This document shows positions 1,314 through 60,400 of a stretch of 60,401 bases of DNA, piece by piece. This DNA is from a virus. The stretch is taken from positions 1-60,401 of the IMG/VR virus record IMGVR_UViG_3300027974_000040; one strand, given 5' to 3'. The notes below the pieces were generated by a model, which did no database searches, was not told the origin of the DNA, and saw only the letters and a list, made by a program, of their open reading frames with translations. The position numbers and the translations under genes are program-made. Position 1 is the first letter of the stretch, and each line of letters opens with the position of its first letter.

Positions 1314-1787
1314 ATGAAACGACTCGTACCATTCATTATCGGCACATTGGCATTAACCGCTTGTGGCACCTCGGCAACTGAAGCCCCTCGTACCGAAGCC
1401 CCAGACACGACGGTAGAGGTAGCCGAAACGACCGACGCACCAATCGCTACGGCCCCTCAAACAACCACAGCCCCAACAACCGAAGCGCCAGAACAAGGCA
1501 CACTTGGCGAGAGAAACGCAAAAGGCAATGCTGAAAGTTATTTAAATGCTATGTCCTTTTCAAAACAGGGCCTCATTGACCAACTTTTGTATGAAGGCTT
1601 CTCTCTAGCCGAAGCCGAATACGGTGTCAATGCCGTTGATGTTGACTGGAACGAGCAAGCCGCATTAAAGGCTCAAGATTATCTGGACACAATGTCCTTC
1701 TCCCGACAGGGTCTCATTGACCAACTCCTGTATGAAGGTTTCACACAGGCTCAAGTCGAGTACGGCGTAAATGCCGTCGGGTACTGA
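1314..1787 (+). CDS. Ltp-type host-surface lipoprotein, probable superinfection exclusion
   Basis: 157 residues. A signal peptide ends in a lipobox (LTAC, residues 14-17), followed by a Thr/Ala/Pro/Glu-rich spacer (18-62). Two tandem copies of the Ltp repeat follow (about 69-108 and 115-155), each reading A...YL..MSFS(K/R)QGLIDQLLYEGF...Q/EA.YGVNAV. This is the repeat of the Streptococcus phage TP-J34 lipoprotein Ltp, which sits on the host surface and blocks DNA injection by other phages. The function here is inferred from that family. Confidence 0.8.
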   Translation: MKRLVPFIIGTLALTACGTSATEAPRTEAPDTTVEVAETTDAPIATAPQTTTAPTTEAPEQGTLGERNAKGNAESYLNAMSFSKQGLIDQLLYEGFSLAEAEYGVNAVDVDWNEQAALKAQDYLDTMSFSRQGLIDQLLYEGFTQAQVEYGVNAVGY

Positions 1788-8578: not shown

Positions 8579-9033
8579 ACCCTCACCTTATATACATCTA
8601 CCATGTATAAATTTAACTGCTCTGTATAAACGTTCATAAAATATTCTCGGTCCCCGTTTGTAGACAGGGTGAACGCTATGTCCCCCAGAACCTTAATCGC
8701 ATTCTGGAAGACTTCGTGGATGTCCATCACTTGATGAGTCCCACGATTCACGTCATCAGACATCTTACGCAATGCCGCCCATGCCTGCTGAGGTGAAGGG
8801 GGTGTTGTTTCCAAAGACTCTTCCACCACCGCTCTGCGTACCGCACCAGGAGTTGGCATCGTCTTCAACACCACAGCCATTTGGATAAATCTATCTCGAA
8901 CCAAAGCAATTTCTAAATCTTTAAGTAGACCCCACCATGCCCGCAAGATAACTTCACGGTCAGATTCATACAGCGTCTGGTTAAAGGAAGCAAACACTTC
9001 CCGGACGAAATCTTCCAATTCAACTTTTGTCAT
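8575..9033 (-). CDS. Helical protein, possible replication accessory
   Basis: 152 residues, almost all helical. The N-terminal 80 residues (WWGLLKDLEIALVRDRFIQMAVVLKTMPTPGAVRRAV) follow the pattern of phage helicase-loader or inhibitor N-domains, where a helical bundle precedes a 'P.pg.ir' turn. It lies directly after a protein with a replisome-organiser-like ending (9033) with stop/start overlap, which supports a replication role. The family match is tentative. Confidence 0.5.
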   Translation of the reverse strand: MTKVELEDFVREVFASFNQTLYESDREVILRAWWGLLKDLEIALVRDRFIQMAVVLKTMPTPGAVRRAVVEESLETTPPSPQQAWAALRKMSDDVNRGTHQVMDIHEVFQNAIKVLGDIAFTLSTNGDREYFMNVYTEQLNLYMVDVYKVRV

Positions 9034-9446
9034 CAGAAATCACCAGTTTTCCTTTTATTTTCGACTCGCGCCAAAAACATATCGACTTGCTTCTGGTTGC
9101 GGAAGATTAACTCTAAGTCGTCGTAGCGTTTGTTCCCTGGATTGCGGCCCATGTGCCAGTCAGATGCCGCACAGCCGTCGATGGCTCTCATGCAGTCTTC
9201 GAGGCCGTAATCAGCAATCGCCGCCCGTACAACCAATTCTCGCTTGTGGTCCAGAGAAGGAACTCGCTTGCGCCCAGGCCGCATGACCGAACACCAGTAC
9301 TGATAGACCTGGTCAACGTCGCTTTCCGCCACCGTCAATCCCTTGCGAATCTGACCCTGCTTCTGTTTCTTGGGACCAGACTGTCCGCCGCGCTTCTTTG
9401 GTTCGTGTGGTATCTCTTCCATATCAAGAGTCAGTATATAGACCAT
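9033..9446 (-). CDS. Replisome-organiser-like phage protein
   Basis: 137 residues. A Lys/Gln/Gly-rich N-terminus (KKRGGQSGPKKQKQG) is followed by a helical domain ending CMRAIDGCAASDWHMGRNPGNKRYDDLELIFRNQKQVDMFL. That ending is common in phage replication and DNA-binding proteins, where the same 'AI.G...s..H.g.n..gkkY.dL..I.r....v' block occurs. An in-frame ATG at 9422 is an alternative start. A motif C copy (9322-9336) lies inside the gene and encodes TVAES. Confidence 0.55.
   Translation of the reverse strand: MVYILTLDMEEIPHEPKKRGGQSGPKKQKQGQIRKGLTVAESDVDQVYQYWCSVMRPGRKRVPSLDHKRELVVRAAIADYGLEDCMRAIDGCAASDWHMGRNPGNKRYDDLELIFRNQKQVDMFLARVENKRKTGDF
9322..9336 (+). repeat. Motif C copy (CTTTCCGCCACCGTC)
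   Basis: Exact copy, lying inside the reverse gene 9033-9446. Confidence 0.7.
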
Positions 9447-11098: not shown

Positions 11099-11479
11099 AT
11101 GAACAACACCACCCGGTTCAATATCTACCAGGCCGCCCTCCAACAATACATCAGTCGCGAAGGTTCCGCCACGGTTCCTGCACATCACGAAGAACATGTC
11201 GACGGCAAGTCGGTGCAACTCGGCACGTGGGTCGGATATATTCGACAACGTTACAAAAACAACAAATTGGGCGAAGACCGCATTAATATTTTAAACAGTA
11301 TTCCGGGATGGTCCTGGGGCCCTCTGCGGCCAGGTCCCAAACCTAATACCTCCAGAAACGCGGAAATCAAGAATCTCAGCGAAGACGGCCAATCGCTCAC
11401 ACAAATCGCCGACCGTTATAACCTCTCCAGACAAAGGATTCACCAAATTGTCAAACCGGCAACTAAACAACCTCAATGA
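11099..11479 (+). CDS. Helicase-associated (HA) domain plus HTH protein
   Basis: 126 residues. Residues 8-72 (YQAALQQYISREGSATVPAHHE ... LGTWVGYIRQRYKNNKL..DRINILNSIPGWSWG) match the helicase-associated domain found in tandem in actinobacterial helicase-like proteins and in phages. Residues 92-118 (SEDGQSLTQIADRYNLSRQRIHQIV) are a sigma-region-4-like HTH. It probably binds DNA; it is the last gene before the origin-like region. Confidence 0.75.
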   Translation: MNNTTRFNIYQAALQQYISREGSATVPAHHEEHVDGKSVQLGTWVGYIRQRYKNNKLGEDRINILNSIPGWSWGPLRPGPKPNTSRNAEIKNLSEDGQSLTQIADRYNLSRQRIHQIVKPATKQPQ

Positions 11480-11504
11480 ATCAAACTCCAGTACAGGGAC
11501 TACC

Positions 11505-11693
11505 ATGGCTTTAATCTTCCTATGGGGGCTAACAGTCTTAGTGACCCAGACGGCTATCTGGTCAACATCGCGAATTCTTGACCACGCCAACGCAATTGAG
11601 AATGACATCACCTGGAGACAGGCAGGATTACTCTCGCTTATCTGGGTGTTCACCAAAACCTGGCACAAAGCGCTTAGTACTACAAAGCAGTAA
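11505..11693 (+). CDS. Small membrane protein
   Basis: 62 residues from the ATG at 11505. One clear hydrophobic helix spans residues 2-20 (LIFLWGLTVLVTQTAIW), with a second weaker amphipathic segment (42-53). It follows the HA-HTH gene by 25 nt. Unknown role. Confidence 0.45.
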   Translation: MALIFLWGLTVLVTQTAIWSTSRILDHANAIENDITWRQAGLLSLIWVFTKTWHKALSTTKQ

Positions 11694-11741
11694 TACTCCC
11701 ATTACGGAGCAAGCACGTGTCGAGACGCTTCGAGCGAATTG

Positions 11742-11756
11742 CTTTCCACCACCGTC
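11742..11756 (+). repeat. Motif C copy
   Basis: CTTTCCACCACCGTC (one change), followed by AAAGGTTGAAG. Non-coding, 145 nt before the LexA boxes. Confidence 0.65.
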
Positions 11757-11900
11757 AAAGGTTGAAGAACATAGAAGATGCTGCCCCCACCCCGTTTGGA
11801 TAAATCTATCCAGAGTAAGCCGACATTAAAAATAGTTTGTATGCCCGCCCAGCCAATATCTATATTCTCAAAAAGTTCGGGGCTTCTGGGGTCATGGATA

Positions 11901-11978
11901 CGAACACTTGTTCGCACGAACACCTGTTCGCTTTTGACCTTCCAAAGTACGAACACCTGTTCCCCGAACATATGTTCT
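11901..11978. promoter_or_regulatory. Array of four LexA-type SOS boxes
   Basis: Four palindromes fit CGAAC-N4-GTTC(G): 11901-11914 (CGAACACTTGTTCG), 11917-11930 (CGAACACCTGTTCG), 11950-11963 and 11965-11978. The first two match the Gram-positive and actinobacterial LexA box exactly; the last two differ at the final base. The spacings are 16, 33 and 15 nt. The array abuts the first DnaA box at 11978, so LexA binding could control origin firing or a transcript entering the origin. Confidence 0.75.
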
Positions 11979-12257
11979 GTGGATAAGTCTGTTGATAACC
12001 CTGTGGATAAGTGCCTACGGATGTGGACGAAGCCCCGACTTTATACACACCCTTGTTGATAACCCCTTTTTACCCTACTTTATCCCCAACCCTGTTGATA
12101 ACCCTGTTGATAACCACCTTAATCAACCTGTTGATAACCCTTACTTATCCACATACCTGTTGATAAACCTGTGTATAACCCTTGCTTATCCTAAGATAGA
12201 CAGTCGTAGAGGATGACAAAAAAGTTTATCCACACCCTTATCCACACCTTATCCACA
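11978..12257. other. Putative replication origin (DnaA-box cluster)
   Basis: Perfect DnaA boxes (TGTGGATAA/TTATCCACA) lie at 11978, 12002, 12145, 12226, 12238 and 12249. Many one-mismatch boxes also occur: TGTTGATAA at 11990, 12054, 12093, 12105, 12129 and 12159; TGTGTATAA at 12170; TTATACACA at 12041; and TTATCCCCA at 12080. There is no gene here. Such a density on both strands is typical of a chromosome- or plasmid-type DnaA-dependent origin. Low-complexity DNA follows immediately. Confidence 0.75.
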
Positions 12258-12299
12258 AGCAAGACACGGCATTACATATGTCGTACACATTGACAGCGT

Positions 12300-12870
12300 T
12301 GCCCCATTCATCATCACATTCATTATCAGGTATCACAAAGTATTACTGAGTATCACAAAGTATTACAAAGCATCACATCATCGTCATCGTCATTGAGTCA
12401 TCGTCAATAGCATTGAGTCATCGTCATATCGTCATCATCATTGACTCGTCATCATTACCATCATTGACAGTCAAGTCATTGAGTCGTCATCACTAAGTCG
12501 TCATCGCTAAGTCATTGAGTCGTCGCAATGCTCACGGGTATATCACGGGTATATAAGTAGTACCCCTATACCCCTACCCCTATACCCCTATACCCTCATA
12601 CTCGTATACATATAGGTACATCATCATTACCCCATCATCACTTCGTTCTCATCATCGTTTCATCATTAGTAAAAAAAGTGCCTACGGGTATTGCTATGGG
12701 TACTACCACTACTACTACTACCACTACTCATCTAACACATACATACATACATCACTACTACCTACCTACCTACCTACCTACCTACCTACCTACCTACCTA
12801 CCTATATCATCATCATCACATATCACTCACTCATTACATACACGCCACTACTTACTCACTTGATATATAC
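12300..12870. repeat. Low-complexity repeat region next to the origin
   Basis: No gene. It holds TATCACAAAGTATTAC repeats (about 12330-12375), many ATTGAGTCATCGTCAT-type units (12375-12530), CCCCTATA repeats (12560-12600), ACT triplets (about 12700-12725) and a TACC tetranucleotide run (12758-12804, about 12 units). It could be an unwinding or iteron region, or simply slippage-prone filler. Confidence 0.7.
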
Positions 12871-12950
12871 AAAAGAGAGTAGCCACTCAAGTCACTGACC
12901 ACCAATGACTAGAGGACTACTCTCCACTTACCTTATAGGGAAGGCAAGAA

Positions 12951-14441
12951 CTATGCGACCAACCTATCTCCAGTCGCCAACTCGTATGCCCGTTTCATGA
13001 TATGAGGGAATGACTTAGCAGGTCGCATACCATTGCTCAACTCGGTCAGGTACTTCACAGCCGACTCAGCATCAGGCACGATAGAGATACCGTGAGCCAA
13101 GCAATACTCAACCGCCTGAAGCGTCAGTGTCTCGTGAGCCACATCACCATGACCAGTCACATACCCATCACATACCCACACGACAGGAGTGCGACTACTT
13201 CGTCGTTCACTCACTGCCCACTTCAGCACAGGTAGGTCTACAGCATTAGCAGAGCCGAACTCAGGCATCTCGTCCACCATACGACCACGACTAGCAAGGA
13301 CATAAGCATTGGTCTCAATAGCCTCGCCATTATCGTCAATGCCGAATGAGGGGACACTATAAGACAGCACAGTACATCCAGGCGATGCCATAACGATACC
13401 CATTACATCATCACGGTCAAGACGCATAGAGCCACTAGTGTCAATGACAACGATGCCACCTTGACCACGAACCGTCTTATCAAAGACACGCTTCTGAGGG
13501 TCAGTCAAGTAACGATGAAGGCGACGAGGATGTTTGCCACTATTGGATGCGACACGCTTCTTACCTAGTGACCCACTCAATACTTCAGGCATAGGCAACC
13601 GTTCCACCTTAAGAGGGAACCAAGAGGGGATAGGAGTCCTATCAACGAGAGTCTCTTTACGAGACTCAGCAAGAGCCTTATCTATCTCGCCCTTCTCATC
13701 TCTCTTTGACTCATCAGTATCAGAGGTATCAGCATCAGAGTCGTCCTTATCAGAACTATCAGTACTGTCACTCTTATCACTCTTGTCATCAGGTTGCTTA
13801 TCGCATAGGCGGTCAATCCAAGAAGCAATACTTTCGGTATAACCAAAGCCTTCTATCAGACCATCAGCAGTGAGAGAGGTGCTAGTGAGTTTGTTCCGTG
13901 GCACTTTCTTTATCTCTCTCATCGCTCGCTTACTAATGTCGGCAAGCACACTGCCCCATACCTTGTTATGTCGGCGCACTCCAGCGATGAACTTCTTATG
14001 ACCGCCCGTACCAACAGTGGCGATAGCGAACTGAACAGCATTGTTCCAGTCACCCATAGCAACGAGGCGTTCGCCTAACTCTTTCTCGCCACCATCACTA
14101 AGAACACTCATGTCATAACCCAAGTGAGTAGCGAGGTAGTTCACTCGCATCTCCTCAACAGAGCGCAGTGACTCCTCAGTTGCGAAACCCCTAGCAATGA
14201 ACGGACTCAAGTCCTTAGGGGACACCTTCGCATGAACCATCTCATGAATACGAATGACCGTAGACAGAGCGTCGCCCGACATAGGTACATTCATAAAGCG
14301 ACCCTCAACAGAGGTCACGGGTAGTCCACGGGTAGGTGGGCAGGCTTCTACAGTCCACGCACCGCCCTTGTCTACATCACCACGACCCAATACTTCAGGG
14401 AGAGGTCGGCGTGATACATCATGCTTGACCTTCACGCTCAC
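12951..14441 (-). CDS. VWA protein with N-terminal HExxH (CobT/DUF2201-like)
   Basis: 496 residues. An HEMVH motif at 66-70 (HExxH, metallopeptidase-like) lies in an N-terminal helical domain. An extreme Asp/Ser/Lys linker spans 215-250. The C-terminal von Willebrand A domain carries the MIDAS motif DTSGSM at 334-339. This order fits 'putative metallopeptidase + VWA' proteins and CobT-like partners of MoxR/CobS ATPases. It overlaps the ATPase gene by 4 nt (ATGA), so the pair is translationally coupled. Probably an ATP-driven remodelling complex; the target is unknown. Confidence 0.8.
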   Translation of the reverse strand: MSVKVKHDVSRRPLPEVLGRGDVDKGGAWTVEACPPTRGLPVTSVEGRFMNVPMSGDALSTVIRIHEMVHAKVSPKDLSPFIARGFATEESLRSVEEMRVNYLATHLGYDMSVLSDGGEKELGERLVAMGDWNNAVQFAIATVGTGGHKKFIAGVRRHNKVWGSVLADISKRAMREIKKVPRNKLTSTSLTADGLIEGFGYTESIASWIDRLCDKQPDDKSDKSDSTDSSDKDDSDADTSDTDESKRDEKGEIDKALAESRKETLVDRTPIPSWFPLKVERLPMPEVLSGSLGKKRVASNSGKHPRRLHRYLTDPQKRVFDKTVRGQGGIVVIDTSGSMRLDRDDVMGIVMASPGCTVLSYSVPSFGIDDNGEAIETNAYVLASRGRMVDEMPEFGSANAVDLPVLKWAVSERRSSRTPVVWVCDGYVTGHGDVAHETLTLQAVEYCLAHGISIVPDAESAVKYLTELSNGMRPAKSFPHIMKRAYELATGDRLVA

Positions 14442-15154
14442 GACAGTGAGTCCACTCGCATCGCATCCATGATTGCGCCAGCACGGTCACCGAACACAAT
14501 CTCCGCACTCTCCTCAACAGAGAGGGATGAACGCAGTTGGTCAAAGGCGTAGAACGCTCGCAGTGAGATGCGCTCCTTGCCAGCATCAGCCATACGAACA
14601 GCGATACCACGCAGGTCTACTGACAAACGCTCAATCGCATCAGGGTGCGGTTCGTCAATGCGAATACGAACAGGGAAGCGGTCAGTGAGTGCCGTTGGCA
14701 ACTCTCTCATGTTCTCAATGTTCGTGGTCATCACCACAGAGAAACCGTTACGAGGCTTATGGATATTGCCAGTCTCAGGGTGTTCCCACGAGGCAGACTC
14801 AGGTGAGTCAAAGAACGAGAGCAAGGTAGCAAGCACATCGCCACCAGCCTTGTCAATCTCGTCAGCAACGACTCGTCCACCTGAGTAGCCGTTACCTTCC
14901 CAAGCCCTCAGTGCCGAACCGCTAACCCATGAGAAACCGCCATTAGCGGAAGGCATGAATGAACCCGATACATCGGCGTTTGTCATATCCTCAGTACATA
15001 CGAGTCTGAAAGCACCGCCACGGGTATCTCCGTAGTTGAGTCCCCCGTAGGTCTTGCCCGTACCCGATGGTCCGAACAGAATGATGCGGTCAATACCGCC
15101 CTCAAGTGCGTTCTTGTACTTCTGCCAACACTTTGGCAAGTCAATGGTGGTCAT
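14438..15154 (-). CDS. MoxR/CobS-like AAA+ ATPase
   Basis: 238 residues from the ATG at 15154, chosen because AGGGAGAAAACA precedes it; an upstream in-frame ATG at 15184 lacks a site. Walker A is GPSGTGKT (28-35), Walker B is VVADEID, sensor 1 lies in VVMTTNIEN, and an arginine-finger region reads LTDRFPVRIRI. MoxR/CobS-type ATPases work with VWA proteins to remodel other proteins, and the VWA partner follows directly. Phages carry such pairs, but their role is not established. Confidence 0.85.
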   Translation of the reverse strand: MTTIDLPKCWQKYKNALEGGIDRIILFGPSGTGKTYGGLNYGDTRGGAFRLVCTEDMTNADVSGSFMPSANGGFSWVSGSALRAWEGNGYSGGRVVADEIDKAGGDVLATLLSFFDSPESASWEHPETGNIHKPRNGFSVVMTTNIENMRELPTALTDRFPVRIRIDEPHPDAIERLSVDLRGIAVRMADAGKERISLRAFYAFDQLRSSLSVEESAEIVFGDRAGAIMDAMRVDSLS

Positions 15155-15194
15155 TGTTTTCTCCCTATTTGTAGTAGTGGGCATTTGCCCTTGT

Positions 15195-26373: not shown

Positions 26374-26412
26374 CCCCTAGCGGTTGTCCACAGGCTGTGG
26401 ATAAGTTTCAAG

Positions 26413-26446
26413 ACAACTAACGAAACTGTTGTACCGATACACAGGT
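26413..26446 (+). promoter_or_regulatory. Class A promoter without start codon
   Basis: DnaA box 26396-26404, 8 nt, ACAAC-N17-CGATA; the expected start is ATA. A class B promoter follows at 26499. Confidence 0.65.
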
Positions 26447-33053: not shown

Positions 33054-33346
33054 AGCCCACAGGGACACTCAAAAAAGGCGCAAAGCCAACAGCAACCTTC
33101 GCCCTTCCTAATGGCGTTGAGGTCGTAGCCTTTCCGCAGAGCCCCGAGTTTTGTGTTCTGTCGCAATGGGAAACCGATGGTCGTTGTTATCGCTCTTACG
33201 CAACTAAGAAAGAAGCAATGGAACGAGTGTCCACCGTGCGGGGCTTGGTAGAACGCAACCGTCCGCAGTTCCCTAAGGGCTACACCTTGTATGTTATGGA
33301 GTTGGGCTCGGACTCCTACAAATGTATTGGCGACTACAAACTCTAG
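33050..33346 (+). CDS. Hypothetical small protein
   Basis: 98 residues, ATGA overlap. A strand-rich start (FALPNGVEVVAFPQSPEFCVLSQW) and a basic helix (TKKEAMERVSTVRGLVERN). It converges on the reverse gene with a 4-nt overlap. Unknown function. Confidence 0.55.
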   Translation: MKPTGTLKKGAKPTATFALPNGVEVVAFPQSPEFCVLSQWETDGRCYRSYATKKEAMERVSTVRGLVERNRPQFPKGYTLYVMELGSDSYKCIGDYKL

Positions 33347-33633
33347 TTATTCAACTGCGACGAACAAGTGTTCTGCTTGTCAGCAAACTTGTATGCTTCT
33401 CGCAAAGTGGAAAACTGCTGGAACTTACCTACGGTTTTAATTCTTCCTGTTTCCCAATCAATCACACGAACCGAGTAACAACGAACTCCCGAGGGGCCCC
33501 GCTCTGAGGTTGTGAAGTGAAACCCGTGAGTAGTCCTGTAAACCTTGCTGTTAAAGAAGTTGATTGTTTCCACATCAAAGAAGTGTTCATCTGCCTCTAT
33601 GTTGCGTTTTTTAATTTCTTTGATTGTCGGCAT
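33343..33633 (-). CDS. Conserved phage small protein ('HFF-E-FF' type)
   Basis: 96 residues: EIKKRNIEADEHFFDVETINFFNSKVY ... CYSVRVIDWETGRIKTVGKFQQFSTLREAYKFA. The same order (HFF....m.FF.s........F..se........y.vr..d..tg.i.tvg.F......a...A) occurs in small proteins on many actinophages and plasmids. Function unknown. It is a lone reverse gene. Confidence 0.65.
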   Translation of the reverse strand: MPTIKEIKKRNIEADEHFFDVETINFFNSKVYRTTHGFHFTTSERGPSGVRCYSVRVIDWETGRIKTVGKFQQFSTLREAYKFADKQNTCSSQLNN

Positions 33634-34045: not shown

Positions 34046-34067
34046 ATTCCTGTGGATAAACTTTGAC

Positions 34068-34101
34068 CCAACTAAGGAAATCACCGAACCGATAGATGAA
34101 T
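34068..34101 (+). promoter_or_regulatory. Class A promoter, leaderless start at 34102
   Basis: DnaA box 34051-34059, 8 nt, CCAAC-N17-CGATA, 7 nt, ATG. Confidence 0.8.
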
Positions 34102-37580: not shown

Positions 37581-37614
37581 CCAACTAACGGAATAGTGAT
37601 ACCGATATATGGAT
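37581..37614 (+). promoter_or_regulatory. Class A promoter without DnaA box, start at 37615
   Basis: CCAAC-N17-CGATA, 7 nt, ATG; GAATAAATAATGA flank. Confidence 0.8.
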
Positions 37615-37998
37615 ATGACCACCACAACAACCGCCACACTCACCAATACTTGTACCTGCGTCACTTACAACGATGACTCAGGCGACTGGGATGAAGCCCC
37701 CGAATGTTGGGGAGACTGCTGGACTGACCAAGTTGAGCATTTTCAGGAAATTACGGAACACTTGTTCACCGAAAACAACCAAGAGTTTCGCATTGAGGGC
37801 TTCCCCCGATGGGATGGAACGGTCAGCGGAACATTTCACGCCCGAACCGCCGAAAAATTGCTTGAGTCAATTACGCCTGACCGCACTGAATGGCGTTTAG
37901 AACTTACCGTTCACGCCACTCACCTGACGGGCTTTCTTTCGCACCACGACGCTAGCGGAACTATCACCGTCACTCCCATTGAGGTGAATGACGAATGA
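37615..37998 (+). CDS. Hypothetical protein, leaderless
   Basis: 127 residues from the ATG at 37615. Cys/Trp-rich opening (CTCVTYNDDSGDWDEAPECWGDCW), then strands (FRIEGFPRWDGTVSGTF and WRLELTVHATHLTGFLSHHDASGTITV). The later part looks like a small beta domain. ATGA overlap with the next gene. Unknown family. Confidence 0.6.
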   Translation: MTTTTTATLTNTCTCVTYNDDSGDWDEAPECWGDCWTDQVEHFQEITEHLFTENNQEFRIEGFPRWDGTVSGTFHARTAEKLLESITPDRTEWRLELTVHATHLTGFLSHHDASGTITVTPIEVNDE

Positions 37999-39879: not shown

Positions 39880-40097
39880 GCAAAATGACAAACTCACACA
39901 ACATCATTGACGACACCGCAACTATTGTTGAGATGGCAGTCGGAGAGCGGGACTTAGAAATCACCGCCATCCGCAAGTCACTCGCAATTATTGATGGCGT
40001 ACTGAAGGACATCGGCAACACGAACATCTGTTCGTCATCGGAAATGACCGACTCTCTCCTTGACTTGCGCAACATACTCAAACCACTCTTAGACTGA
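39876..40097 (+). CDS. Hypothetical small protein
   Basis: 73 residues, helical (DDTATIVEMAVGERDLEITAIRKSLAIIDGVLKDI). A LexA-type box (40021-40034) lies inside the gene. Unknown function. Confidence 0.55.
   Translation: MSKMTNSHNIIDDTATIVEMAVGERDLEITAIRKSLAIIDGVLKDIGNTNICSSSEMTDSLLDLRNILKPLLD
40021..40034. promoter_or_regulatory. LexA-type box inside a gene
   Basis: CGAACATCTGTTCG matches the CGAAC-N4-GTTCG consensus. It lies within 39876-40097, about 160 nt before the next class A start, so it may be coincidental. Confidence 0.4.
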
Positions 40098-40147
40098 GAA
40101 GCCCCGAGTTTCGAGCACATCTTCGTTGGGTGTGGATAAACTCTCGC

Positions 40148-40181
40148 CCAACTAATAGAATACTGAAACCGATACACAGGT
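40148..40181 (+). promoter_or_regulatory. Class A promoter, leaderless start at 40182
   Basis: DnaA box 40131-40139, 8 nt, CCAAC-N17-CGATA, 7 nt, ATG. Confidence 0.8.
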
Positions 40182-46410: not shown

Positions 46411-48393
46411 ATGAGTGGCATGAAGAAGCGGTTGGGTGATGACAAAGGGGATGAGGCAAGTACTCTCACTTTGGTTGATGACATCATCGTTGCGGAGTTT
46501 CCCTATGACTCTGACTTGGTTGCAGAAATTAAGTGCATACCTTCAGCGAAATGGGACAAGGTTGCCAAAGTATGGCGCACTCCGCTAACAAGCCTCAGGC
46601 AAATGCGGGACTTCGCAATCAAGTACGACTTCATCATCTCAAACGAAATCTTGGCTTTTGATATTCCTGACCACAAAAACCCAGGAGATGGTCTCTCTGT
46701 TAGGGGGAAGTATGTCTACCTCTCCTTTAAGTACGACCCTGTGATGGTGCGCTCGGTGAAGCAAATTGAGGGGATAACTTGGGACTCTAAGACCAAGGCT
46801 TGGAAGGCTCCGATGACAGCGATTGAAACCGTAGTCAAGTGGGCGACTACTTTCAAGGTTGATGTCCCAAATGATGTTCGTGCCGAGGCAGAAAGAATTA
46901 GTACGAGCCAAAGCGAACGACGAAGTGCTAGTCGTGAAGTTGATGCAGAGATAGATATCCCGGGGCTACAGGGGACACTCCTTCCATACCAAAGAGCAGG
47001 AGTTGCATACGCATCAGCAGTAAAGAGGGCATTCATCGCAGACGAAATGGGACTTGGCAAGACCCTGCAAGCGATTGCAACACTAGAGAACCTTCACCTG
47101 CAACGAGAAGATGGCGAGGCTAGTCCCGTATATCCAGCAGTAGTGATATGTCCGAGCACTCTTGTACTCAACTGGAAGAACGAATACAACCGATGGCTCC
47201 CCGAAAAAATCGTTGAGGTTGTCAAGAACCGCAAAGAGATACCTATGTTCGGTACATACGATGTTCTCGTCATTGGCTACTCCAATATAACTGCGTGGGA
47301 AAACCAGTTGATGAATCATAACGCTTATGTGTTTGATGAATCGCATTACTGCAAATCAACGGATGCACAGCGCACGAAGTCAGCAAAGAAGATGACTAAG
47401 TCAAACAAGAACGCAGTTGTTCTCTGCTTGACAGGAACTCCAGTAACTAATAGACCAGCAGAATATGCTTCGCAACTAGACATCCTTGGGCAACTTGATG
47501 CGTTTGGTGGACTATGGGGCTTCTATCGTCGCTACTGCAGTGCATATAAAGACAAATGGGGTCAATGGCATCTTGAAGGTCATTCCAACTTAGAAGAACT
47601 TAATGACAAACTGAGAGCAAACTGCTACATCAGAAGAACTAAAGACCAAGTGATGAAAGAGTTACCACCAGTCATCCATAATCCTGTTGTCGTAGAGGGC
47701 GTGCCCACTGTAATGAAGGAATATGCAAAGGCTAAAGATGACATCGTTGCTTACTTAGTGGAACGAGCAAAGCAGATAGCCAAAGAAATGGGCGTTCCGG
47801 TCGGGGCTGCCGCTGTATCAGCACGCTTGAGGGCTGAATCAAATGAGCATCTCGTGAAAGTGAGTGTCTTACGCAAGATTGCGGCTAAGGCAAAGATGCC
47901 AGCGGTTGAAGAATGGATTGACGCTCGCGTGCAAGACGGAAAGAAAGTTGTCGTTGCGGCTCACCACAGAGAAATCGTAGACATGCTCGCAAACAAATAT
48001 GGCGGTTTGAAGATTCAGGGTGGAATGTCTATTGAAGATATTGAAGAGGCTAAGTGGAAGTTTCAGAACATGACCTGTGAGGAAGCCCCGGTTATTGTTC
48101 TGTCAATCCAAGCGGCTAAGACTGGACATACTCTTACGTCGGCTCAAGATGTTCTGTTTGTTGAGTTCCCTTGGACACCAGCAGACATTGACCAGACATA
48201 CTCACGCTGTCATAGAATCGGTCAGTTGGGTTCCGTCACATCTACGTACATGATGACAACTGGAACCATAGATGAAGATATCTACTCGCTCATTGATAAG
48301 AAGAGGGTTGTAGTTAATAGGGCTGTAGAGGGAGATATTGCGTTCACTGAAGATAACGCTAGTAACATCTTGATGAAATTCTTAAATTTCTAG
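46411..48393 (+). CDS. SNF2/SMARCAL1-like helicase
   Basis: About 660 residues; candidate starts are 46396, 46411 and 46420. Residues 20-150 contain two HARP-like repeats ('IPSAKWDKVAKVWRTPLTSLRQMRDFA' and 'IEGITWDSKTKAWKAPMTAI') as in SMARCAL1. Then come Walker A (DEMGLGKT, about residue 211-218), a DESH Walker B (FDESHYC), LTGTPVTN and a motif VI (QTYSRCHRIGQ) near residue 595. It should be an ATP-driven DNA translocase or annealing helicase for replication or repair. Its first 120 nt occur again inverted at the window end. Confidence 0.9.
   Translation: MSGMKKRLGDDKGDEASTLTLVDDIIVAEFPYDSDLVAEIKCIPSAKWDKVAKVWRTPLTSLRQMRDFAIKYDFIISNEILAFDIPDHKNPGDGLSVRGKYVYLSFKYDPVMVRSVKQIEGITWDSKTKAWKAPMTAIETVVKWATTFKVDVPNDVRAEAERISTSQSERRSASREVDAEIDIPGLQGTLLPYQRAGVAYASAVKRAFIADEMGLGKTLQAIATLENLHLQREDGEASPVYPAVVICPSTLVLNWKNEYNRWLPEKIVEVVKNRKEIPMFGTYDVLVIGYSNITAWENQLMNHNAYVFDESHYCKSTDAQRTKSAKKMTKSNKNAVVLCLTGTPVTNRPAEYASQLDILGQLDAFGGLWGFYRRYCSAYKDKWGQWHLEGHSNLEELNDKLRANCYIRRTKDQVMKELPPVIHNPVVVEGVPTVMKEYAKAKDDIVAYLVERAKQIAKEMGVPVGAAAVSARLRAESNEHLVKVSVLRKIAAKAKMPAVEEWIDARVQDGKKVVVAAHHREIVDMLANKYGGLKIQGGMSIEDIEEAKWKFQNMTCEEAPVIVLSIQAAKTGHTLTSAQDVLFVEFPWTPADIDQTYSRCHRIGQLGSVTSTYMMTTGTIDEDIYSLIDKKRVVVNRAVEGDIAFTEDNASNILMKFLNF
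46419..46538 (+). repeat. Inverted 120-bp repeat, copy 1
   Basis: Identical, in reverse complement, to 60282-60401. It covers the first codons of the helicase from the ATG at 46420. Confidence 0.95.
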
Positions 48394-60274: not shown

Positions 60275-60400
60275 TTATCGGATGCACTTAATTTCTGCAA
60301 CCAAGTCAGAGTCATAGGGAAACTCCGCAACGATGATGTCATCAACCAAAGTGAGAGTACTTGCCTCATCCCCTTTGTCATCACCCAACCGCTTCTTCAT
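60275..60400 (-). pseudogene. 41-codon inverted copy of the helicase start
   Basis: MKKRLGDDKGDEASTLTLVD and onward is identical to the helicase start at 46420, then reads CIR and a stop where the two copies diverge. It may be a real gene fragment, an inversion remnant or a chimera at the contig end. Confidence 0.6.

What the first reader, a model, noticed from the sequence alone, without database searches (positions are those of the whole stretch)
11901..11978. Four LexA-type boxes abutting a DnaA-box origin
CGAAC-N4-GTTC(G) palindromes at 11901, 11917, 11950 and 11965 sit directly against the first DnaA box (11978). Two are exact SOS boxes. Replication of the element, or a transcript through the origin, may be released by DNA damage, which would be a simple lysogeny-to-lytic switch without a phage repressor.
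Basis: partly seen in the sequence, partly recalled or inferred. Interest (0 to 1): 0.7.

Follow-up and report, generated by a model that had tools for sequence, protein, structure and literature searches.

The report
LexA sites beside phage DnaA boxes
A family of uncultured viruses, probably of freshwater Acidimicrobiia (actinobacteria), carries copies of its host's DNA-damage-repressor (LexA) binding site packed against a cluster of replication-initiator (DnaA) sites, so host DNA damage may tell the virus when to replicate.

Summary
Four CGAACANNTGTTC(G) palindromes lie at 11901, 11917, 11950 and 11965, and the last ends exactly where the first of 14 DnaA-type boxes begins. The core GAACANNTGTTC occurs 8 times in the window; about 0.06 are expected. 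The sites match the LexA boxes found in 22 of 22 scored lexA promoters of Acidimicrobiia, the probable host class; 11902 and 11918 score above the median host lexA box. The arrangement is not private to this contig. LexA boxes abut DnaA boxes in near relatives, in two distant ones (78-kb and 105-kb contigs) and in about 17 distinct contexts across viral contigs, against 3 hits for a reversed-DnaA control and 2 of 296 host genomes. In a sister clade a single box instead overlaps the leaderless promoter of an HTH gene (11 of 11 sampled members). I conclude that these are host-LexA operators in a LexA-DnaA control region, probably an origin. Direct gating of replication, a lysogenic state and SOS induction are inferred, not shown. 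No coding gene or sigma-70-like promoter lies downstream of the window's boxes, no integrase was found, and GC skew does not confirm the origin. Closest precedent: phage GIL01, whose promoters are repressed by host LexA.

The parts
11901..11914 (.). LexA box 1, CGAACACTTGTTCG (exact)
   Evidence: PWM 22.8 bits vs host lexA boxes 17.4-24.5, median 21.5
11917..11930 (.). LexA box 2, CGAACACCTGTTCG (exact), 16 bp after box 1
   Evidence: PWM 22.6 bits
11950..11963 (.). LexA box 3, CGAACACCTGTTCC (1 mismatch)
   Evidence: PWM 18.7 bits
11965..11978 (.). LexA box 4, CGAACATATGTTCT (1 mismatch), 15 bp after box 3; core ends at 11977, directly against the first DnaA box
   Evidence: PWM 18.4 bits; same abutment in L253 and other viral contigs
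11978..12257 (.). Array of 14 DnaA-type boxes (TGTGGATAA, TGTTGATAA, TTATCCACA), mostly in 12-bp register; putative origin
   Evidence: clusters next to LexA boxes in L003/L004, L005, L012, L013
12330..12804 (.). Non-coding tandem-repeat region (units of 4, 8, 10, 14, 20, 28 bp) beside the DnaA array
   Evidence: G+C 0.37-0.48
11099..11479 (+). 126-aa protein with a helicase-associated (HA) domain and a sigma70-r4/resolvase-like HTH. In a sister clade its orthologues' leaderless promoter carries a single LexA box
11505..11693 (+). Small putative membrane protein (62 aa), conserved after the HTH gene
12951..14441 (-). 496-aa protein of unknown function (phrog_33218), convergent with the HTH gene across the control region
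14438..15184 (-). AAA_5 ATPase, used to find relatives
9033..9446 (-). Replication-initiation-like protein (phrog_16167); a homologue lies on composite-bearing contigs L256 and L285
26360..26373 (.). Further exact LexA box, next to a pair of DnaA-type boxes (26384, 26396) and a repeated early-promoter element
   Evidence: PWM 22.5
33361..33374 (.). Further LexA-type box (1 mismatch), at the 3' end of gene 33343-33633
   Evidence: PWM 19.7
37755..37768 (.). Further LexA-type core, inside gene 37609-37998; weak flanks
   Evidence: PWM 11.7
40021..40034 (.). Further exact LexA box, inside gene 39885-40097, about 110 bp upstream of a DnaA-box/early-promoter element
   Evidence: PWM 20.9

Best explanation
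The four palindromes are operators for the host's SOS repressor LexA. They form one control region with the abutting DnaA-box array, most likely an origin of replication, of a large uncultured actinophage whose host is probably in the Acidimicrobiia. In an undamaged host, LexA dimers fill the tandem sites (15-16 bp apart). Because the last core ends exactly where the first DnaA box begins, bound LexA would hinder DnaA assembly or strand opening there and keep phage replication low. When host DNA damage triggers RecA-stimulated LexA cleavage, the array is freed and replication rises. A sister clade places LexA control on a different step: one box at the promoter of a leaderless HTH-regulator gene. 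SHOWN by sequence: the sites, their match to host-class lexA operators, their enrichment, and their recurring abutment to DnaA boxes. INFERRED: host identity, LexA occupancy, origin function, steric blocking, SOS release and any dormant state.
For: (1) 8 GAACANNTGTTC cores vs about 0.06 expected; 48 GAACRNNYGTTC vs 0-5 for permuted palindromes in relatives. (2) lexA promoters of Acidimicrobiia carry the same boxes, 1-3 each, with similar flanks. A matrix trained only on these gives the four window boxes 18.4-22.8 bits, inside the host range of 17.4-24.5; 7 window sites score at least 14 vs 0.33 expected. (3) Host hint: the window's ferredoxin is about 73% identical to Acidimicrobiia proteins; AAA-gene homologues of 46-62% occur in Acidimicrobiia genomes; two WhiB genes. 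(4) LexA+DnaA composite conserved as a unit: L003, L005, L012, L013, L235 and L253; in G057 the only dense DnaA cluster of 105 kb abuts two boxes 15 bp apart. (5) Collection scan: 32 loci (17 contexts) vs 3 for the reversed-DnaA control; only 2 of 296 host-class genomes have it. (6) Sister clade: box at the HTH promoter in 11 of 11 members, one clade at 100/98 support. (7) Phage GIL01 shows that host LexA can run a lysis/lysogeny switch (PMC6182141, PMC4551915).
Against: No binding, expression or replication data exist. Origin function is not confirmed by GC skew. DnaA-type boxes also occur in many early-promoter elements of this phage, so the array may be a regulatory or titration element. 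In L008-L011 the tandem boxes persist without a DnaA cluster, and in L007 they lie several hundred bp from it. Three of the other four window sites lie inside coding sequence. No integrase was found. The host is inferred from similarity only.
Confidence: 0.45

Rival explanations
1. LexA operators that control transcription only: the boxes repress a promoter in the control region (a small RNA, an antisense transcript or transcriptional activation of the origin), as SOS boxes usually do, with no direct effect on DnaA.
For: In the sister clade the box clearly overlaps a promoter, just upstream of a -10-like hexamer 6-7 nt before the ATG. LexA normally acts at promoters.
Against: No sigma-70-like promoter was found in 11450-13000, though leaderless or phage-specific promoters would be missed. 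No credible coding gene starts downstream within 900 bp on either strand. The conserved neighbour is the DnaA array, not a start codon.
Confidence: 0.25
2. Titration or decoy: multiple LexA boxes per genome, amplified by replication, soak up host LexA and derepress the SOS regulon to the phage's benefit.
For: Window-clade contigs carry 6-10 sites in 47-64 kb, some inside coding sequence, where an operator role is unlikely.
Against: Long (145-158 kb) sister records carry only 2-3 sites, one of them always at the HTH promoter. Decoys need not abut DnaA boxes or keep 15-16 bp spacing.
Confidence: 0.12
3. The palindromes are sites of a phage protein (an iteron-binding initiator, the HA-HTH protein, or a truncated LexA-like protein) that only resemble LexA boxes.
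For: Tandem 15-16 bp repeats beside DnaA boxes look like plasmid iterons. Five relatives encode a short LexA-type DNA-binding protein without a peptidase domain, one of them (G037) with boxes beside DnaA boxes.
Against: The HTH recognition helix SRQR[VI]HQI is invariant in phages with and without the box. No LexA-type protein was found in the window-clade records. The match to host lexA operators extends to the inner A/T and outer C/G.
Confidence: 0.13
4. Chance palindromes in a repeat-rich region, without function.
For: The neighbouring region is full of short tandem repeats.
Against: Strong enrichment against shuffles and permuted palindromes, conservation across divergent phages and a viral-versus-host contrast.
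Confidence: 0.03

Closest known systems
Bacillus thuringiensis phage GIL01 (Betatectivirus), LexA/gp7-controlled switch
   Same: Host LexA binds palindromic CGAAC-N4-GTTC-type boxes in the phage genome, including tandem boxes, and a truncated phage-encoded LexA homologue (gp6) exists; here some relatives encode short LexA-type DNA-binding proteins (PMC6182141, PMC4551915).
   Different: GIL01 is a 15-kb linear genome capped by terminal proteins, with boxes at promoters P1 and P3. Here the boxes abut a DnaA-box array in a much larger actinophage, and no LexA-type protein was found in the window clade.
Vibrio filamentous phage CTXphi (LexA plus RstR at the rstA promoter; from memory)
   Same: A host LexA site controls phage replication functions.
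   Different: A promoter site, integrated prophage and phage repressor; no DnaA array. Not tested here.
CtrA-controlled Alphaproteobacteria phages ('lytic deferment')
   Same: Host regulator sites concentrated in one intergenic region of a phage genome, proposed to time lysis by host state (PMC9437464).
   Different: Regulator is CtrA (cell cycle), sites in promoters; here LexA (DNA damage) beside DnaA boxes.
Actinobacterial LexA/SOS box (Streptomyces tCGAAC-N4-GNNCGa)
   Same: Core CGAAC-N4-GTTCG (PMC9380542).
   Different: Outer T/A of the Streptomyces box is absent; phage and Acidimicrobiia boxes both have other flanks.

Membership tests
LexA operator (SOS box) of Acidimicrobiia | GAAC-RNNY-GTTC core with C/G just outside, as in lexA promoters | tested here: met
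   11902, 11918 and 26361 score above the host median; 11951 and 11966 (one mismatch) lie within the host range
LexA operator (SOS box) of Acidimicrobiia | bound by LexA and released after DNA damage | not testable with these tools
   needs a binding assay and an infected host
LexA operator (SOS box) of Acidimicrobiia | located at a promoter (usual, not obligatory) | tested here: inconclusive
   window boxes: no sigma-70-like promoter or downstream gene seen, but other promoter types are not covered; met in the sister clade
GIL01-type LexA-controlled temperate phage | host LexA boxes in a phage control region | tested here: met
GIL01-type LexA-controlled temperate phage | dormant extrachromosomal state induced by DNA damage | not testable with these tools
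   only hints: no integrase, ParA-like proteins in three sister phages, Ltp lipoprotein
GIL01-type LexA-controlled temperate phage | phage co-repressor (gp7-like) and truncated LexA (gp6-like) | tested here: inconclusive
   LexA-type short proteins in five relatives, none in the window-clade records, which may be fragments; gp7 not searched
DnaA-dependent replication origin | cluster of DnaA boxes beside an A+T-rich or repeat-rich non-coding region | tested here: met
DnaA-dependent replication origin | GC-skew turning point (supporting sign, not obligatory) | tested here: not met
   no clear turning point at the array in the window, G037 or G057
DnaA-dependent replication origin | supports autonomous replication | not testable with these tools
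   needs a plasmid test

The most novel reading that the evidence does not exclude
Host LexA directly gates a phage replication origin: LexA dimers on tandem boxes abutting DnaA boxes exclude DnaA, so SOS induction licenses phage replication without any phage repressor or promoter. The same LexA-DnaA composite would then be a widespread device among uncultured actinophages.
Probability: 0.3. Interest if true: 0.82.

Novelty: new variant of a known kind. Interest (0 to 1): 0.62.

Why it matters
Use of host LexA in place of a phage repressor is known from a few small phages, at promoters. Here LexA sites are joined to a DnaA-box array in large, uncultured actinophages, in near relatives and in distant contigs, while a sister clade puts the same site on a regulator's promoter. 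If LexA gates replication directly, host DNA damage (for example by sunlight in surface water) would set viral timing in a group of common freshwater bacteria whose phages are barely known. The idea can be tested with purified proteins and short DNA.

Tried and rejected
- Near-identity search of phage records with window 1-25000, and tblastn with the AAA protein: no match. - Auto-regulation by the HA-HTH protein: disfavoured, since its recognition helix is invariant whether or not the box is present. A structure search of its model found only generic HTH folds, no E below 0.001. - The composite as a copied host arrangement: rejected, only 2 of 296 host-class genomes carry it. - Integrated prophage: no PF00589 integrase in 19 records; serine integrases were not searched. 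- GC skew as proof of an origin: uninformative. - Some low-G+C hits of the collection scan (for example L260/L275, a LexA box between TTGACA and TATAAT) look like ordinary SOS promoters in which the DnaA match is coincidental. - Literature: of the open papers held, none combined LexA, SOS box, DnaA box, origin of replication and phage except one unrelated genome paper.

Full report
WHAT WAS CHECKED. The window is a 60.4-kb record of an uncultured virus. The core GAACANNTGTTC occurs 8 times in the window, against about 0.06 expected (60401/4^10). Four copies lie within 78 bp, in two pairs spaced 16 and 15 bp. The last core ends at 11977 and the first DnaA-type box, TGTGGATAA, begins at 11978. 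From there to 12257 there are 14 such boxes, mostly in 12-bp register, followed by a non-coding stretch of short tandem repeats to 12804. The whole control region (11694-12950) has no credible gene and lies between convergent genes.

WHAT THE SITES MATCH. The phage's ferredoxin gene has its best relatives (about 73% identity) mostly in records labelled Acidimicrobiia or Ilumatobacteraceae, and homologues of its AAA gene (46-62%) occur in genomes of that class, one on a contig over 1 Mb. I therefore read the lexA promoters of such genomes: lexA was found in 23 of 29, and every lexA locus carries GAAC-N4-GTTC boxes, 1-3 upstream of lexA where the gene start could be located. A matrix trained on 37 distinct boxes from 22 genomes gives the window sites 22.8, 22.6, 22.5, 20.9, 19.7, 18.7 and 18.4 bits, within the host range of 17.4-24.5 (median 21.5). 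Seven window sites reach 14 bits where 0.33 are expected. The training boxes were selected by their core, so the fair part of this test is the inner A/T preference and the flanks. Both agree, and both lack the outer T/A of the Streptomyces box (PMC9380542).

CONSERVATION. Eighty relatives were found through the AAA gene. Near relatives (L003/L004, L005, L012, L013) carry boxes against a DnaA cluster, often four in tandem with some degenerate, even where a methyltransferase-like gene stands between the HTH gene and the module. In L007 the boxes and the DnaA cluster are several hundred bp apart, and in L008-L011 the boxes remain but the DnaA cluster is missing. Two distant relatives (G037, 78 kb; G057, 105 kb) have the module elsewhere in the genome. 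In G057 two boxes 15 bp apart abut the only dense DnaA cluster of the contig. Across 566 kb of representative loci there are 48 GAACRNNYGTTC sites against 0-5 for eight permuted palindromes, and 17 of 48 lie within 60 bp of a DnaA-type box, against 2 of 20 controls. A scan of all viral contigs for the composite gave 32 loci in 17 contexts, against 3 for a reversed-DnaA control. Only 2 of 296 Acidimicrobiia genomes have it. Some of the low-G+C hits are probably coincidental SOS promoters.

A SISTER CLADE USES THE SAME SITE DIFFERENTLY. In 11 of 11 sampled members of one clade (support 100/98), a single box lies about 15-20 bp upstream of the ATG of the HA-HTH gene, directly before a -10-like hexamer with a leaderless start. 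Their long records (145-158 kb) hold only 2-3 boxes in all. The recognition helix of the HTH protein is the same with and without the box, so the HTH protein is unlikely to be the binder. In other clades (G034, G037, G043, G052, G053) a short LexA-type DNA-binding protein is encoded, recalling gp6 of GIL01 (PMC6182141).

MECHANISM. The most likely reading is host-LexA control of a DnaA-dependent region. Zero-gap abutment, together with the 18-20 bp footprint expected of a LexA dimer (PMC4551915), makes steric competition at the first DnaA box plausible. No sigma-70-like promoter and no downstream gene is seen. Direct origin gating, promoter control of an unseen transcript, LexA titration and a phage-encoded binder all remain open; I give them about 0.45, 0.25, 0.12 and 0.13. 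The first figure covers LexA control of the DnaA array in any direct form; the stricter claim in the section on the most novel reading is put at 0.3. Evidence for a dormant state is thin: no integrase in 19 records, ParB-type genes in 11 of them, ParA-like proteins in three sister-clade phages and an Ltp-type superinfection-exclusion lipoprotein in the window.

NOVELTY. Host-LexA control of phages is known (GIL01; CTXphi from memory), and host-regulator timing of lysis has been proposed for CtrA (PMC9437464). A recurrent LexA-DnaA composite in large actinophages was not found in the open literature searched. I class it as a new variant of a known kind.

Noticed in passing
window 15782-46133, e.g. 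26396-26445, 34051-34100, 40131-40180: More than 20 copies of an early-promoter-like element: TGTGGATAA (often paired 12 bp apart) or GAATAAA, then about 9 nt, CAACTAACG, about 10 nt, ACCGATAC, mostly with an ATG a few bases later (leaderless). The -10 resembles FliA/WhiG-type promoters, and DnaA-type boxes are part of many copies.
   Followed up: partly
L215-L219 (G034, G037, G043, G053, G052): Relatives encode short LexA-type DNA-binding proteins (PF01726) with no sign of a peptidase domain; they were not found in the records of the clade whose HTH promoter carries a LexA box.
   Followed up: partly
L295, L296, L297: About 200-aa ParA-like proteins in three 151-158 kb sister-clade phages without a detected integrase; possible plasmid-like maintenance.
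   Followed up: partly
window 1314-1787: Lipoprotein_Ltp (superinfection-exclusion type) gene, a kind best known from temperate phages.
   Followed up: no
window 60275-60400 and 46420-46545: The contig's last bases encode, inverted, the same protein start as the helicase gene at 46420; probably an assembly artefact or a terminal inverted repeat.
   Followed up: no
window about 11040, 11740, 33655 and upstream of many HTH orthologues: A recurring intergenic motif CCTTTCC(A/G)CCACCGT(C) near gene ends; function unknown and not counted.
   Followed up: no
L260 and L275: A LexA box exactly between TTGACA and TATAAT upstream of a small gene in another, low-G+C virus: an ordinary SOS-type phage promoter.
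   Followed up: no
L003, L012, L013: A DNA methyltransferase-like gene with a leaderless start stands between the HTH gene and the LexA-DnaA module.
   Followed up: no
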